From Akkermansiaceae bacterium (GTDB lineage Bacteria > Verrucomicrobiota > Verrucomicrobiia > Verrucomicrobiales > Akkermansiaceae), in assembly GCA_903919975.1 (NCBI GenBank), contig CAIXKE010000094.1:1-64000 (forward strand): a DNA stretch of 64,000 bases, read 5' to 3'. Shown in pieces: positions 57,965 to 63,823 of this stretch. Every line of letters starts with the position of its first letter. The stretch's first letter is position 1. Position numbers and translations under genes: made by a program. Under the pieces are notes generated by a model. It made no database searches and had not been told where the DNA came from. It worked only from the letters and a program-made list of their open reading frames with translations.

Positions 57965-60900
57965 ATGGACATTCTGGCGAAAAACCTGCTCATTCTGGCT
58001 TCCGCCGGATCGGGAAAAACATTCCAACTCGGCAACCGAATCATCGGCTTGGTCGCGAACGGTGCCGAACCGGAGCGGATCGTCGCCTTGACCTTCACCC
58101 GCAAGGCCGCCGGGGAATTTGCAGATTCCGTGCTGACCAAATTGGCCGAGGCCGCCGCCGAAGCGCAATCCGCCGCTAATCTGCGTGAAGAACTGGGCAT
58201 TCCCGGGGCTGATTTCAAACAAGCGCTGAGCAAAGTGGTGCAAGCCTTGCCGCGCATCACTTTGGGGACCATGGACGGGTTTTTCTCCAGAATCATCCGG
58301 AGTTTCCAATATGAACTCGGCCTCACCGGCGGAAAATTCGACCTGCTCGAAGGTCCGCGCGCCGCCGTTATGACGGATGAAATCCTGTCCGGAATCCTCA
58401 GCGATGTCCTGGCAAATGAAGCCGGCCAAGAATTTTTCCATGCCTTCCGTCGGGCGACCATCGGCAAAGAGGATCAAACCGTCATCAACTCCCTGCGCGC
58501 CTTCGTCACCCGCTGGCATGGCCGCTATCGCGAAGCACCGGAACTCGAATGGGGGCCCGCAGCCATCGCCACCGTCAGCCCGGATGATTGGAGCAAACAA
58601 AAATCCGGATTGGCAGCGCAGGTTTTGCGCGGACTCGATGATCTCGATTACACCCGCAAAGGCCAACGCGAGGCGCTTGAAAAAGAAATCCTGAATTTGG
58701 GAAATCATGTCATCGGCGGCGGCAGCCTTGGCAGCGGCATCTCCGGCCTCATGGAGAGCATCCTCGCTGCGGCGATCAGCCCTAACCAGCCATTGACCGT
58801 TAAATTCTACAAGGAATTCACCATTGGCGGACCGACAGGCGAAGCCTTGAGCGCGATGGTCGAGCTGGCCGCGCAATGTGAATTTTCCGCCGCTTTGCTG
58901 CGGACCAGGGCGGTTAGAGAAGTGATTGCCATGTTCGATGCGCTTTGCGCGAAACGCCTCCGCAGCAAGGGCATGCTTGGATTCAACGACGTTAAAATCC
59001 TCATGGGAGAATGGGCCGCCAACGAGGATTCGCGCTTGCGGCGCGAGGCGGTGGATTTCCGCTTGGACGCGCGTATTGATCATTGGTTGTTGGATGAATT
59101 TCAGGACACCAGCCGCGCGGATTGGATGGGTCTGCTGCCACTCGTAGACGAAGCCGCTACCAATGACGAAAGTACGATGTTCATCGTTGGAGACCGCAAA
59201 CAAGCCATCTATGCTTGGCGCGGTGGGGACGTAGGCCTTTTTGACGAGGTGATCTCGCATTACGGCCATGGTCTTGAGATCGCCCCCATGGCGGAGTCCT
59301 GGCGTTCATGCCCAGAGGTCCTCGCATTGGTCAATCAAGTTTGTGGGGGTCTCACCACGCTGAACGAGCTTTTCGGCGATGTGGCGAAACAGTGGGAGTG
59401 GCAGGATCACTTTCCGGCGAAACCGTTGACGAAACCCGAAAAGCGCGGGCATGCACGCGTTGAAATGGTCGGGGATTGGGAAGAGCGACTCGAAAGACTC
59501 GGCGAAATTCTCCACGAACTCGGCGTCGGTGAACGCGCCATGACCTGCGGCGTGTTGCTGCGTGGAAATGACAAAGCCCGACAAGTCGCCGATGACCTCA
59601 GAGCCCGTGGCTTCGATGTGATCGAGGAAGGACGAAGGCAGCCTGGAAAAGACAATCCCGTCGGGATTCTAATCACCCATCTTCTGAAATGGCTGGCCGA
59701 CCCCGCGGACCACTTTGCCCGCAGAGTGATTGAAATGTCACCTCTAGCAGAGATCCTCCACTCAACGCCCGATCAGTCATGGCGCGATATCTGGGAAAAT
59801 CTCACTCGTGAAATCTCTCTCTCGGGATATGCGGCCTGCATCGGCAGATGGATCGATCCATTGTGGACCGACTGGTCGGACTTCGGTCGCCGCCGCGCGG
59901 GCGATCTACTGGCCGGACTTGCGGCACTCGATCATCAGGACGGAGTTTCCGCCAAGGAAGCCGCCGACTGGATGGAGCGCCTCGAATTCACACAAAGCCC
60001 GGGTATTGCCGCCGTGCAAGTCATGACGATCCACAAGGCAAAAGGTCTTGGTTTCGACGTCGTGATCCTTCCGGATATCCCCAGCGATAGTGTGCCACAG
60101 GCCCAATATTTTGAGGTGGCCGAGGGTGAAGCATGGCTCACCCAAACACCTCCCAAATGGGCGCGGGCGATGATTCCGGAGCTCCGTGAGGCGGAAGAAC
60201 GCTGGAGCACCGGCCAACGCTACGAGGCATTTTGCATGCTCTATGTCGCACTCACCCGGGCCAAGCGCGGACTCTATGTCTTGCTGGAGCCCGCTGCGAA
60301 AAAAAGCGATCCTGATAAACCATCACTTTCTAACTGGCTCACCCGCTCCATCGGTGATTCGAAAGAGACCGGAGTTCTCTATCAAACCGGCGAGGATGAC
60401 TGGATCGAAATGATTGCCCTTTCGGAATCAAGCCAGAAGCCACAGCCCACCATGAGTCCTGCCGCAGCCACTCCGCGACGTGGGCGAAAAACCCCAAGTG
60501 GAGCCAAGTCGAAATCCACGACCATCGCTCATTCAAGCACCGGGATGCAATTCGGCACGGAAGTGCATGCGCTCCTTGAGCAAATCACTTGGACCGATGA
60601 ATCCGCGCCGAATCTTCCGGACAGCGATGCCGGTCAGGCCGTTAGCCGAATCCTCCAAAATCCGACATTGTCTCCGATTTTCCAAAGAGCCGGCCGCAAC
60701 ATCGAACTATTCCGCGAACAAGGCGCCGATATCATCCAAGATGGGAAACTGCTCACGGGTGTGATCGATCGACTTCATCTGCACCAGGATGCAAATGGAA
60801 AAGTGGCACGGGTCGAGATCATCGACTACAAAACCGATGCGGTCGAAAAAACCGCCGAGCTCGCGGAACGATACCAAGGGCAAATGCATTCCTACCGCCA

Positions 60901-60982
60901 AGTGATGCAATCCATCCATCCGGACGCCGAGGTCGCATGCTCGCTCATCTCCGTGAGGCACGGCGAAGTCGTTTCCGTTTGA
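57965..60982 (+). CDS. addA: AddA-type UvrD-family helicase-nuclease
   Basis: A 1005-residue DNA double-strand-break-processing enzyme. Walker A is LILASAGSGKTFQL (about 10-23). Other helicase motifs are VALTFTRKAAGEF (Ia), WLLDEFQDTSRADW (II), FIVGDRKQAIYAWRGGDVG (III), VMTIHKAKGLGFDVVIL (V) and YVALTRAKRGLYVL (VI). The C-terminal PD-(D/E)XK nuclease has GTEVHALLEQ, LLTGVIDRLH and VEIIDYKTD. An adjacent AddB is absent. The stop lies 6 bp from the end of the convergent primase-helicase gene. Confidence 0.9.
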   Translation: MDILAKNLLILASAGSGKTFQLGNRIIGLVANGAEPERIVALTFTRKAAGEFADSVLTKLAEAAAEAQSAANLREELGIPGADFKQALSKVVQALPRITLGTMDGFFSRIIRSFQYELGLTGGKFDLLEGPRAAVMTDEILSGILSDVLANEAGQEFFHAFRRATIGKEDQTVINSLRAFVTRWHGRYREAPELEWGPAAIATVSPDDWSKQKSGLAAQVLRGLDDLDYTRKGQREALEKEILNLGNHVIGGGSLGSGISGLMESILAAAISPNQPLTVKFYKEFTIGGPTGEALSAMVELAAQCEFSAALLRTRAVREVIAMFDALCAKRLRSKGMLGFNDVKILMGEWAANEDSRLRREAVDFRLDARIDHWLLDEFQDTSRADWMGLLPLVDEAATNDESTMFIVGDRKQAIYAWRGGDVGLFDEVISHYGHGLEIAPMAESWRSCPEVLALVNQVCGGLTTLNELFGDVAKQWEWQDHFPAKPLTKPEKRGHARVEMVGDWEERLERLGEILHELGVGERAMTCGVLLRGNDKARQVADDLRARGFDVIEEGRRQPGKDNPVGILITHLLKWLADPADHFARRVIEMSPLAEILHSTPDQSWRDIWENLTREISLSGYAACIGRWIDPLWTDWSDFGRRRAGDLLAGLAALDHQDGVSAKEAADWMERLEFTQSPGIAAVQVMTIHKAKGLGFDVVILPDIPSDSVPQAQYFEVAEGEAWLTQTPPKWARAMIPELREAEERWSTGQRYEAFCMLYVALTRAKRGLYVLLEPAAKKSDPDKPSLSNWLTRSIGDSKETGVLYQTGEDDWIEMIALSESSQKPQPTMSPAAATPRRGRKTPSGAKSKSTTIAHSSTGMQFGTEVHALLEQITWTDESAPNLPDSDAGQAVSRILQNPTLSPIFQRAGRNIELFREQGADIIQDGKLLTGVIDRLHLHQDANGKVARVEIIDYKTDAVEKTAELAERYQGQMHSYRQVMQSIHPDAEVACSLISVRHGEVVSV

Positions 60983-60988
60983 TATCGA

Positions 60989-63823
60989 TTACCTATTCAG
61001 ACGCCGCTGGTGGGCGACAATGCGAAGAATGGCGTCGAGCGTCGCGTCCAAGTTCTTGCCAAGATCTTCAGCGAGAAAGCGCAGGACGAGAAAACCGCTT
61101 TCCTGAAGCAGGGCGTCCTTGCGTCGATCACGGCGATAAGCCGCTGGATCAACGAGGTGCTGTGGTCCATCGATCTCGATGGCGAATTTGAGATCAACGG
61201 AGAACAAATCGATTTCCATTTCGCTCCAGCCATCGAAGGGAATCGCAAGCTTGGTGTTGAGACGGAAAAGGCCGGCGGTTTCCGGCAAGAATTCGAGGCG
61301 TTTGAAGAGAAATGCTTCGGATGCACTGCGCGCACGATGATCATCGTTATTAATCCGCGCCGCACTGACAAACAGATTGCCAAGGGGAACGTCCACGCCA
61401 TCGCGAATCAAGCGGCGGACGCTGGCGGAATAGTCCTGTTTCCAAACAGGATCGATGGGCAGAGGCACCTCGCTCGGCCAGCCGGGTAAAGCACTGGCGG
61501 GCAGAAGGATTGTGTAACCGACGGCTTCGTAACCCGAACAACGCTTGTCGAACATGCGGGAAAGCATCGGAATATCCAGATCGGCATAGTCGTGAACCCT
61601 GACCTCTCGTTTGCCATCGTGTAGGCGATGGAGACGCCCGGCATACTGGGCGATCATGCCACGCCATGAAACGGGCATCGTGAGAAAAAGGGTGTCGAGA
61701 CGCGAATCGTCGAAACCTTCGCCGACGAACTTGCCGGTCGCGATGACGACCCGTGACTCGTTTTCTGGCACGGCGGCGAGTTGTCCGAGTGCTTCCCGCA
61801 AACTTTTACGTCCCATGCCACCCTGCAGCACGATCAGGTGGCTTGCGTGCGGGCGAATTAGTTCGGTTAGTGTCATTACGTGCTCTGTCCGTTCGGTGAG
61901 AACCAGTGGCGAGCGTCCCTCGTTAAGGGCGGCAATAACATCATCGCGGATCATGAGATTGCGCGGATCCGAGCGGATGATCTCCGCACAAAGGTTTTGG
62001 TATTCGATCCGGCGGTCGGAATCCGGATCGGTGGTGGAGCGGAGACCGGTGGGACGGACAATGACATGATGGGAAAATGGCCGGGCATGTGCCTGTTGCT
62101 TGGCATCCACCCGGTGGCGGACGGGGCCACATTGCATGAAGATGATCGGATGGTGGCCATCCTTGCGCGCCACAGTAGCGGATAGACCGAGCACATAACG
62201 AGCCTTGGTTCGGCGGGTCACCAACTCAAAACTGCTTGCTGATAGATGATGGCATTCATCGACAATCAAATGTCCATAGTCTGCCACCCGGTCATCCACC
62301 ACACCTTTGCGAACAAGGCTTTGGATCAAGGCGACGTCGATTAAGCCATTGAGTTTCTTGTGACCTCCGCCGAGTCTTCCGATGGCCTTGGCAGGCAGAC
62401 CGAGGAAGGACGAGAGTCGCTCTACCCATTGTTCCAGTAGTTGCTGGCGATGCACCAGAATCAGCGTATTCACGCCGCGCGCCGCTATGAGATGAGCGGC
62501 AACCACGGTCTTTCCGAAAGCAGTGGTCGCGGAGAGCACACCGGAATCGTGCTCGAGCATTGCGGTGGCGGCTTGCTCCTGCTCCGGACGGAGGGTTCCG
62601 GCAAAATGGAAATTCTGGGGTGTTCCAGCCACCCGCTCATCTCGGATGATCGGTTTGATTTTCAGTCCGGACAGCAGCGTGAGGACCTCCTCAAAACAAC
62701 CACGCGGCAATCCCACATGCGCGGGCAGATCTTCCGCACAGGCGATGACCCGCGGTTTTCCATAGGTTGAAAGGCGCATGGCCTGGGCGCGGTAAAACTC
62801 CAGATTTTGGAATGCGGCAAGGCGCAGCAGACTATTGCGGAGCGCAGGCGGCAACTCGCTTTTTGCTAGATAAATCTGATCTCCAAGAACTACTTCAATC
62901 TCCTGAGGCAAAGGACCCGCGACGGGCGAAGCGCGATGCCTGCGGGAAGGCGGGCTGTTCCATGGCTCCACTTCGTCGTCGTCATGCATGAGCGCGTATC
63001 GCACGCCAACAACGCGGCCACGGCTCTCCGCATTTTGCACGAGAGCATCGATTCGATCCCGTGATAGGCGCTCGATTGACGAGATAAAGGCCCAAGGATC
63101 CGGATAAGGAGTGAGCTTATCATCCACAAACATGCTGTGCTTGTTTTGCCGCGGGCCTTTCTGCATCGGTAGGGCGATCAAATTGCCGAAGCCTCCCTTG
63201 GGCATCGTATCCTGATTCGGGAAAAGCCGGTCGTATGAGGCGAGACCGAGTTCCGGCCTTTGCTCCATCGTTTCCGTGAGAATGAATGATCCAAGCTTTC
63301 TCGCGAATACGGCGGGAACGGCGTCTTTGAAAAACAACCAAACATGCCCGCCATTGCCGGACCGTGAGCGCTCGAGCGCGGCGGGAATTGCCAAGCGTCG
63401 ACAAGTTTCCATCACCGCCAGCACGTCTTCCTGCCACGATTCCTTATCGAAATCCGTGGCGAGAAAATAACAGGTTTCATCCACGAGCATCGGATAGACG
63501 CCGGCGACAAAATCATTCCCGGCCTTGTCTTTTCCTGATAGATGACAGCGGATGATCTCATCGGTGACTGGCAAAAAGGCGCGATGTGGGCAAGCGCCGC
63601 ATTTGATCTTCGGTTTCTCACAAATACCGCGAACCCATTCATTGCCGCATACCGGAGCGTAGCCGGATTTGCCCGACTTCGGGTTGTCGTAGCGTCGGGG
63701 ATACACATCCTCGCGTCCCCGGAAAAGTGAACGAAAAAGCGCTATCTTTTCTCCGACTGGACTGCGTGCGTGCACTCCGATGGGATCAACCGCAGCGAGT
63801 TGGTTTTCTGGCTTACCTCTCAT
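60989..63823 (-). CDS. Primase-helicase-nuclease fusion (TOTE-type conflict protein)
   Basis: A 944-residue three-part protein. The N terminus has a Cys cluster (C59, C68, C75, C78) and an archaeo-eukaryotic-primase-type domain with FLATDFDKES (DxD metal site, 124-126) and ERSRSGNGGHVWLFF (SGxGxH, 155-160). The centre is an SF2 helicase: ATTAFGKT (Walker A, 432-439), LIVDECHHLS (DECH, 522-525), GLSAT and IAQYAGRLHRLHDGKR (motif VI). The C terminus is a DUF559/Vsr-like nuclease, with EIDLFSVDLKFAIEIDGPQH and DALLQESGFLVLRF. This architecture matches the core of TOTE conflict systems. Such proteins are proposed to defend against foreign nucleic acid; activity here is inferred. Confidence 0.88.
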   Translation of the reverse strand: MRGKPENQLAAVDPIGVHARSPVGEKIALFRSLFRGREDVYPRRYDNPKSGKSGYAPVCGNEWVRGICEKPKIKCGACPHRAFLPVTDEIIRCHLSGKDKAGNDFVAGVYPMLVDETCYFLATDFDKESWQEDVLAVMETCRRLAIPAALERSRSGNGGHVWLFFKDAVPAVFARKLGSFILTETMEQRPELGLASYDRLFPNQDTMPKGGFGNLIALPMQKGPRQNKHSMFVDDKLTPYPDPWAFISSIERLSRDRIDALVQNAESRGRVVGVRYALMHDDDEVEPWNSPPSRRHRASPVAGPLPQEIEVVLGDQIYLAKSELPPALRNSLLRLAAFQNLEFYRAQAMRLSTYGKPRVIACAEDLPAHVGLPRGCFEEVLTLLSGLKIKPIIRDERVAGTPQNFHFAGTLRPEQEQAATAMLEHDSGVLSATTAFGKTVVAAHLIAARGVNTLILVHRQQLLEQWVERLSSFLGLPAKAIGRLGGGHKKLNGLIDVALIQSLVRKGVVDDRVADYGHLIVDECHHLSASSFELVTRRTKARYVLGLSATVARKDGHHPIIFMQCGPVRHRVDAKQQAHARPFSHHVIVRPTGLRSTTDPDSDRRIEYQNLCAEIIRSDPRNLMIRDDVIAALNEGRSPLVLTERTEHVMTLTELIRPHASHLIVLQGGMGRKSLREALGQLAAVPENESRVVIATGKFVGEGFDDSRLDTLFLTMPVSWRGMIAQYAGRLHRLHDGKREVRVHDYADLDIPMLSRMFDKRCSGYEAVGYTILLPASALPGWPSEVPLPIDPVWKQDYSASVRRLIRDGVDVPLGNLFVSAARINNDDHRARSASEAFLFKRLEFLPETAGLFRLNTKLAIPFDGWSEMEIDLFSVDLKFAIEIDGPQHLVDPAAYRRDRRKDALLQESGFLVLRFLAEDLGKNLDATLDAILRIVAHQRRLNR

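What the first reader, a model, noticed from the sequence alone, without database searches (positions are those of the whole stretch)
60989..63823. Primase-helicase-nuclease fusion: a probable TOTE-type defence protein
One protein joins a Cys4 cluster, an archaeo-eukaryotic primase-like domain (DxD and SGxGxH intact), an SF2 helicase (Walker A, DECH, QYAGRLHR intact) and a DUF559-like nuclease. Established knowledge: this order is the core of the TOTE conflict systems. The sequence shows all catalytic motifs intact. Inference: it acts against foreign DNA. It sits convergent with a RecB-family nuclease, and no transposase or phage gene is near it.
Basis: partly seen in the sequence, partly recalled or inferred. 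Interest (0 to 1): 0.72.

Follow-up and report, generated by a model that had tools for sequence, protein, structure and literature searches.

The report
Solitary primase-translocase-nuclease fusion protein
A bacterial chromosome carries a single large enzyme that joins a DNA-priming domain, a DNA motor and a DNA-cutting domain; it belongs to an already named family of unproven function that may defend cells against foreign DNA or help maintain their own.

Summary
One intact 944-residue gene (60989-63823, minus strand) encodes a Cys4 site, an archaeo-eukaryotic primase-polymerase, an SF2 motor and a DUF559 nuclease. Profile and fold comparisons sharpen this: the primase is closest to CRISPR-associated Prim-Pol (CAPP), and the motor is XPB-like, with an XPB-type N-terminal domain and a RED-like motif. 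The catalytic positions are kept in all, or all but one, of 75 full-length sequences from several phyla.

TBP was found in 0 of 50 carrier genomes, no TPR or OB family recurs among 143 nearest neighbours, and the neighbours scanned here are not TOTE parts.

The nuclease-bearing form parts from the nuclease-less form by one change on a quick, unrooted tree. The nuclease-less form often sits beside transposon or recombinase genes and resembles the already described CAPP-helicases.

Defence is a reasonable lead but unproven; genome maintenance is a serious rival. New member of a known kind, moderate interest.

The parts
60989..63823 (-). Whole gene: Prim-Pol / XPB-like motor / DUF559 nuclease fusion, 944 aa
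   Evidence: purifying selection in two close pairs of relatives, dN/dS 0.095 and 0.078
63590..63649 (-). Cys4 site C59, C68, C75, C78, inside the N-terminal part of the Prim-Pol domain
   Evidence: invariant in 75 of 75 long forms and in 35 rows labelled short plus 93 long of a wider alignment; metal binding inferred
63044..63751 (-). Archaeo-eukaryotic primase-polymerase domain, residues 25-260
   Evidence: PF22548 323.5 bits; PADLOC PrimPol 290.6 bits; CAPP Prim-Pol 7nqd, profile E 1.3e-14, VIA Z 23.5, rmsd 2.1 over 196 residues
62624..62905 (-). XPB/UvsW-type N-terminal domain, about residues 307-400 (corresponds by alignment range to the XPB 'damage recognition' domain)
   Evidence: VIA: XPB 6p4f residues 0-435 on model 307-762, Z 22.9; T4 UvsW 1rif 1-282 on model 307-572, Z 19.6
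62144..62623 (-). Motor domain 1 (residues 401-560): Walker A K438-T439, DECH 522-525, RED-like R553-K554-D555
   Evidence: ResIII; XPBII phmmer E 1.2e-17, R553-K-D555 aligned with R-D-D of StXPB
61484..62143 (-). Motor domain 2 (residues 561-780) with QYAGRLHR 726-733
   Evidence: fold alignment to XPB through residue 762; motif invariant except A728; Helicase_C only below its cut-off
61004..61324 (-). C-terminal DUF559 / PD-(D/E)XK-like nuclease, residues 834-940
   Evidence: DUF559 37.6 bits; profile match to 3hrl 'endonuclease-like protein' E 2.1e-7, 0.013 with the single sequence; E836, E870, E883, D885, D899, K902 in 75 of 75
57965..60982 (+). Context only, not part of the system: convergent AddA-type helicase-nuclease
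   Evidence: strong match (E 4e-84 or better) in 40 of 41 genomes of the genus, the other only 2.8e-6; adjacency not seen in the relatives compared

Best explanation
A stand-alone, chromosomally resident enzyme of the CAPP-helicase / AEP-TOTE family that bears its own nuclease. Proposed working: the XPB-like motor recognises a DNA distortion or a single/double-strand junction (archaeal XPB uses its RED motif for this) and translocates or opens it; the Prim-Pol primes or fills the exposed single strand; the DUF559 domain cuts the processed DNA. The most likely use is as a self-contained innate barrier to incoming or actively replicating foreign DNA. Shown: the domain composition, the integrity and conservation of three active sites, no TOTE partner genes in the searches made, the one-step long/short split on a quick tree. 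Inferred: substrate, order of steps, and that the target is foreign rather than the cell's own damaged DNA.
For: Three catalytic domains intact and near-invariant in 75 full-length sequences, under strong purifying selection in two pairs. Patchy presence: 24 of 59 relatives, 41 of 288 genomes of the phylum (39 over the cut-off). One clear discordant placement against AddA, G017 (AddA 48.5%, this protein 79.5% identical to the window's). Nuclease-less relatives lie beside TniB-TniQ, three-recombinase clusters, a Tn3-type transposase, integrases, or in AlpA-YfjI islands, a setting of inter-element conflict. Single family members lie beside or near a C5-methyltransferase-like and a GIY-YIG-like gene (named by eye), a methyltransferase-helicase pair or AbiEii. 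The nearest solved Prim-Pol, CAPP, is implicated in CRISPR adaptation (PMC8211822, abstract start and passages).
Against: No excess of defence families: 123 PADLOC families matched among 143 nearest neighbours, 124 among 143 distant ones; a crude measure. No association with Cas1: 12 of 24 carriers, 16 of 35 non-carriers. None of 16 probe proteins from the mobile loci matched the 80 long-form loci at 1e-6; two weak matches at 1e-3. The long form follows phylum closely (10 changes, least possible 7, shuffled 32.5) and mostly follows AddA within the genus. It is 61-67% identical to rows labelled as other phyla over its full length, which seems high for a defence gene (my judgement). I found no experiment on it in the held papers.
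Confidence: 0.47

Rival explanations
1. A genome-maintenance enzyme (repair or replication restart). The XPB-like motor opens damaged or stalled DNA, the nuclease incises and the Prim-Pol re-primes or fills the gap, all in one chain, much as archaeal XPB works with the separate nuclease Bax1 and as bacterial LigD (recalled) joins a Prim-Pol to end-processing domains.
For: Best fold and sequence matches of the motor include XPB of XPB-Bax1 repair complexes and of TFIIH, RadD and T4 UvsW; largely vertical inheritance and high conservation; neighbours scanned are LysM, NmrA-like, AddA, SOUL, YaaH-like and AAA_14/DUF4143 genes; no excess of defence families. Carriers rarely have Ku: 1 of 24 against 9 of 35, p 0.038. 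In Thermus a Prim-Pol, whose kinship to this one I could not test, was reported to balance AddAB (PMC9751324, abstract and discussion).
Against: No match in 247 of 288 genomes of the phylum. The Ku contrast vanishes within the genus (1 of 17 against 3 of 20, p 0.61), and 5 of the 9 Ku-bearing non-carriers are of one family, f4. Nuclease-less relatives beside mobile-element genes are not where a host repair enzyme is expected.
Confidence: 0.33
2. A gene for replication, transposition or maintenance of mobile elements, with the nuclease-bearing form a domesticated relative.
For: 12 of 22 plasmid regions viewed have the gene beside or near recombinase, transposase or island genes; PMC8211822 says non-CRISPR CAPP homologues are typically in MGEs and TEs (passage).
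Against: No integrase or transposase family in 2 or more of 143 nearest neighbours of long forms, no probe match at 1e-6, composition close to the surroundings (GC 56.4%, window 58.3%). Several plasmid regions viewed show no recombinase or transposase.
Confidence: 0.1
3. The effector of a true TOTE system whose TPR-OB and TBP proteins lie elsewhere in the genome.
For: The Prim-Pol domain is Pfam's AEP-TOTE family and NCBI uses that name.
Against: TBP in 0 of 50 carrier genomes including this one, while four archaeal controls rang; 12 of 288 phylum genomes gave weak TBP matches, two of them over the cut-off; no TPR, OB or TBP family in 2 or more of 143 nearest neighbours. A very divergent TBP could be missed by PF00352.
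Confidence: 0.04
4. A CRISPR adaptation helper acting in trans, like CAPP.
For: CAPP is the closest solved Prim-Pol; this genome has a Cas1.
Against: Cas1 is on another contig (C53), and presence of Cas1 is not associated with the gene.
Confidence: 0.03

Closest known systems
CAPP_A type 3 (CAPP-Helicase) and their non-CRISPR homologues on mobile elements (PMC8211822, passages)
   Same: Prim-Pol followed by a helicase; the non-CRISPR group has no Cas operon; Prim-Pol fold matches CAPP
   Different: A C-terminal DUF559 nuclease is added and the gene is chromosomal without a recurrent partner; 'DUF559' does not occur in that paper's main text and the passages seen mention no nuclease fusion
TOTE conflict systems (TPR, OB, TBP, Effector)
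   Same: Prim-Pol domain belongs to the family Pfam names AEP-TOTE
   Different: No TPR, OB or TBP partner found
Archaeal XPB-Bax1 helicase-nuclease
   Same: XPB-like motor with N-terminal domain and RED-like motif, together with a nuclease
   Different: The nuclease is a DUF559-type domain fused at the C terminus, a Prim-Pol is fused in front, and RED reads RKD
RadD and T4 UvsW helicases
   Same: SF2 motors that align over model residues 407-792 (RadD) and 307-572 (UvsW 1rif)
   Different: Only the motor part is aligned; the rest of those chains was not compared
PADLOC 'PrimPol' models
   Same: PDLC01465 matches residues 24-338 with 290.6 bits
   Different: The model's description is CRISPR-associated; the only Cas1 of this genome is on another contig

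Membership tests
TOTE conflict system | effector with AEP-TOTE primase domain (Pfam's naming) | tested here: met
   PF22548 323.5 bits, cut-off 27
TOTE conflict system | TATA-binding protein (TBP) | tested here: not met
   PF00352: 0 of 50 carrier genomes, own genome included; controls ring in 4 archaea
TOTE conflict system | TPR and OB (cold-shock) protein in the operon | tested here: not met
   own neighbours scanned: KDPG aldolase, NmrA-like, LysM, AddA, SOUL, YaaH-like, AAA_14/DUF4143, Y1_Tnp; no TPR, OB or CSD family in 2 or more of 143 nearest neighbours of relatives at E 1e-4
CAPP (CRISPR-associated Prim-Pol) | CAPP-type Prim-Pol fold with catalytic residues | tested here: met
   7nqd Z 23.5; D124, D126, H160 aligned with CAPP and invariant
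CAPP (CRISPR-associated Prim-Pol) | operon with Cas1/Cas2 | tested here: not met
   the only Cas1 match of the genome is on contig C53, the gene on C94
XPB helicases | N-terminal domain plus two motor domains in XPB order | tested here: met
   6p4f 0-435 on model 307-762, Z 22.9, rmsd 4.5 over 392 residues
XPB helicases | RED motif | tested here: inconclusive
   R553-K554-D555 in its place; R and D in all 128 rows examined (93 long, 35 labelled short), middle residue K, R or once Q
XPB helicases | thumb (ThM) motif | not tested
   model not examined for it
DUF559 / PD-(D/E)XK nucleases | profile match and catalytic residues | tested here: met
   DUF559 37.6 bits, cut-off 20.6; E870, E883, D885, K902 in 75 of 75, D872 in 74 of 75; residue roles recalled
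anti-phage defence gene | location among defence genes | tested here: not met
   123 against 124 PADLOC families matched, near against far neighbours of relatives; a crude measure
anti-phage defence gene | protection against phage or plasmid | not testable with these tools
   needs a bench test
Ku-LigD-type end joining | Ku partner | tested here: not met
   no Ku match in the window's genome

The most novel reading that the evidence does not exclude
A single polypeptide that restricts DNA without a modification enzyme or guide: the XPB-like motor finds structure (forks, gaps, bubbles) on incoming DNA, the Prim-Pol turns exposed single strand into duplex, and the fused nuclease cuts it. That would be a structure-sensing, self-templating restriction enzyme, derived by one nuclease fusion from a mobile-element CAPP-helicase.
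Probability: 0.15. Interest if true: 0.75.

Novelty: new member of a known kind. Interest (0 to 1): 0.38.

Why it matters
In E. coli it is mostly named after TOTE systems (23 of 25 listed rows), and my searches found no held paper that tests it. Showing that the name does not fit this gene's surroundings, and that a nuclease-bearing chromosomal form parts from a nuclease-less, often mobile form at one branch, makes a clean comparison possible: same motor and Prim-Pol, with and without the cutter.

Tried and rejected
Partner genes: clustering the ORFs of 80 loci (1054 in all, the family's own included) gave no family in more than 6 loci; that six-locus cluster was not annotated further. AddA as functional partner: AddA matches strongly in 40 of 41 genus genomes, but in only one other of them (G013) do the listed matches share a contig with this gene, some 22 kb apart. 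No AddA match at 1e-10 was printed for the 80 fetched loci, many with short flanks. Flanks are little conserved for either gene (this gene 2 of 15 genome pairs, AddA 4 of 15), so adjacency proves nothing. Empty-site test: no SOUL match lay in the AddA regions of the relatives fetched, and where both were found they are on different contigs, so no insertion boundary could be drawn.

Rampant transfer between phyla was my first reading of about 65% identity everywhere; the tree rejected it (quick tree, phylum labels as submitted). Within the genus G017 is discordant, the window's own placement shifts with modest support, the rest is mostly concordant; identities of the two proteins correlate only moderately (Spearman 0.39, 14 genomes).

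Co-occurrence with Ku is weak and with Cas1 absent. TBP matches in 12 of 288 phylum genomes are weak (best 24.8 bits, two over the cut-off, frames of 310-536 aa) and were not pursued. Phages: 559 records matched, none over 80% of the query; the 30 listed cover only the motor side (from residue 297) at 24-29% identity. Viral contigs: 7 loci, one of them a long form.

Dropped rows: of 80 loci, six (L054, L064, L065, L072, L075, L090) were in pieces or truncated and left out of the 75-row set. L180 and L233 were left out of the long/short tree, and L175, L178, L179, L229, L234 bore no label there; still counts L178, L179 and L234 among 35 'short'. Long/short labels of loci L213-L241 rest on open-frame length alone. 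Of the relatives, G051 and G054 have only weak matches (34 and 40 bits) in frames of 442 and 394 aa. Neighbour ORFs (one on each side, 90 aa or more, within 3 kb) were chosen mechanically and include false ones in both near and far sets. The best 80 loci are those nearest in sequence, so conservation figures lean high.

Literature: the paper that defines TOTE (Aravind, Iyer et al. 2022) is not held and I saw nothing of it; the expansion of the acronym comes from PMC12458937 (abstract and passages). Listings for TOTE, for Prim-Pol with DUF559 and for TniQ with primase showed nothing on this fusion. PMC7824862, PMC10853773, PMC7159879, PMC10910872, PMC8649781 and PMC10345425 were searched for terms only. 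The XPB-Bax1 paper PMC7293015 was seen in a listing only.
Full report
What is there. The ORF at 60989-63823 (minus strand) is intact, 944 aa, and the only full-length copy in a 3.8 Mb, 112-contig genome of 97.6% completeness. Its nearest named relatives are in records titled Akkermansia, Prosthecobacter, Akkermansiaceae and Verrucomicrobiia. Pfam finds AEP-TOTE (residues 25-260, 323.5 bits), ResIII (410-552) and DUF559 (871-936) over their cut-offs.

Domain identity. A 75-sequence profile matches, in the PDB, archaeal XPB (E 3.2e-20), CAPP Prim-Pol (1.3e-14) and the endonuclease-like protein 3hrl (2.1e-7). An AlphaFold2 model (mean pLDDT 78.7, pTM 0.53, so the placement of domains is uncertain) aligns to CAPP Prim-Pol at residues 24-268 (Z 23.5, rmsd 2.1 over 196 residues), to XPB at 307-762 (Z 22.9, rmsd 4.5 over 392 residues) and to T4 UvsW at 307-572 (Z 19.6). 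So part of the stretch between primase and motor, unassigned by Pfam, corresponds to the XPB N-terminal domain. The RED motif of S. tokodaii XPB (R205, D206, D207; PMC7672443, passages), which helps recognise bubbles there, aligns with R553-K554-D555. The nuclease end was not searched as a model of its own.

Conservation. In 75 full-length sequences (the window's plus 74 of 80 fetched loci; six in pieces were dropped) the Cys4, DxD, H160, DECH, R730/R733 and nuclease residues are invariant, except D872 in 74 of 75. Identity to the window's protein is 61-82%. Two close pairs give dN/dS 0.095 and 0.078, against 0.118 and 0.103 for AddA. All three activities appear to be under selection.

Distribution and descent. 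The family is in 24 of 59 genomes searched and in 17 of the 37 of the genus, the window's included; three of those 17 are nuclease-less copies at about 41% identity. In the phylum it is in 41 of 288, 39 over the cut-off. The tree of 75 long forms needs 10 changes of phylum label, where 7 is the least and shuffles average 32.5, so descent seems mostly within phyla. Within the genus the tree mostly matches that of AddA; G017 is the clear exception. GC content is close to the window's.

Long and short forms. The 17 plasmid copies examined and the four of the genus and order end near residues 770-790 of the query, without the nuclease. On a tree made from residues 25-755 the 93 long and 32 short rows part at one branch (SH-aLRT 95, quick tree, unrooted): one gain or one loss of the nuclease. 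Gain is favoured because short rows fill the deeper diversity under the midpoint root, but no outgroup was used.

Surroundings of the other form. 28 plasmid records match over at least 80% of the query and 114 match at all at 1e-20. I viewed 22 plasmid regions (17 confirmed nuclease-less, five, not checked) and one E. coli chromosome region. The gene follows TniB-TniQ in two; lies beside, or one gene from, three tyrosine recombinases in five; lies between a resolvase and a Tn3-family transposase in one; is next to an integrase in two; and lies in AlpA/YfjI/Gp2 islands in two plasmids and the chromosome (the first of these in the chromosome annotated only as a helix-turn-helix regulator). The remaining ten show IS or transposase genes, toxin-antitoxin or other genes, or no recombinase. 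Plasmids are rich in such genes, so this is suggestive; it was not tested against a control. PMC8211822 already states that non-CRISPR CAPP homologues are typically in MGEs and TEs and most often Prim-Pol plus helicase (passage). The short form is therefore known in outline.

TOTE membership. The name means TPR, OB, TBP, Effector (PMC12458937, passage). TBP was found in 0 of 50 carrier genomes tested, own included; no TPR, OB or TBP family occurs in 2 or more of 143 nearest neighbours; the window's own neighbours scanned are none of these. The protein has the AEP-TOTE domain, but on these tests the locus is not a TOTE system as defined there.

Function. For defence: patchiness, intact nuclease, conflict-prone settings of short forms. 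Against: no excess of defence families (123 near, 124 far), no link to Cas1, mostly vertical descent. For maintenance: XPB/RadD/UvsW kinship, high conservation, and rarity of Ku in carriers (1 of 24 against 9 of 35), which does not hold within the genus. The Thermus Prim-Pol work is only an analogy: its Ppol was first credited with defence against environmental DNA (PMC7693054, abstract and section 5), an effect that the same group later said could mostly be attributed to loss of AddAB (PMC9751324, abstract and discussion). I lean to an innate DNA barrier at 0.47, maintenance at 0.33.

Verdict. Observation confirmed; interpretation partly supported; new member of a known kind; interest 0.38.

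Noticed in passing
L206 3142-4834 and 4880-7369: In a genome of the same genus a nuclease-less relative is convergent with a C5 DNA methyltransferase-like gene and a GIY-YIG-like gene (Eco29kI-like by eye, recalled), which look like a small restriction-modification pair.
   Followed up: no
L048 6837-7319: An Acidobacteria contig carries, downstream of the full protein, a second separate copy of the C-terminal nuclease region (64.6% identical to residues 802-941).
   Followed up: no
L188 6286-12223 (NZ_CP070285.2): An Escherichia albertii plasmid holds the short form between a resolvase and a Tn3-family transposase, as if part of the transposon body.
   Followed up: no
L265 9001-12675: In E. 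coli strain 111 the short form is interrupted by an IS3-family element; 681 of 5426 E. coli genomes hold at least 80% of the gene.
   Followed up: partly
contig C94 about 71753-72832, beyond the window's end (L104 15754-16833): A Y1_Tnp (IS200-like) transposase-like gene about 8 kb from the gene's start.
   Followed up: no
short forms L204-L207: Short forms of the genus and order start with a conserved stretch, coiled-coil-like by eye (such as LRALEARREQLIRERERL), that the long form lacks.
   Followed up: no
L024 against L144; L211 against L103: In one close genome pair the synonymous divergence of this gene (0.388) is twice that of AddA (0.189), while another pair shows no such gap (0.256, 0.225).
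   Followed up: no
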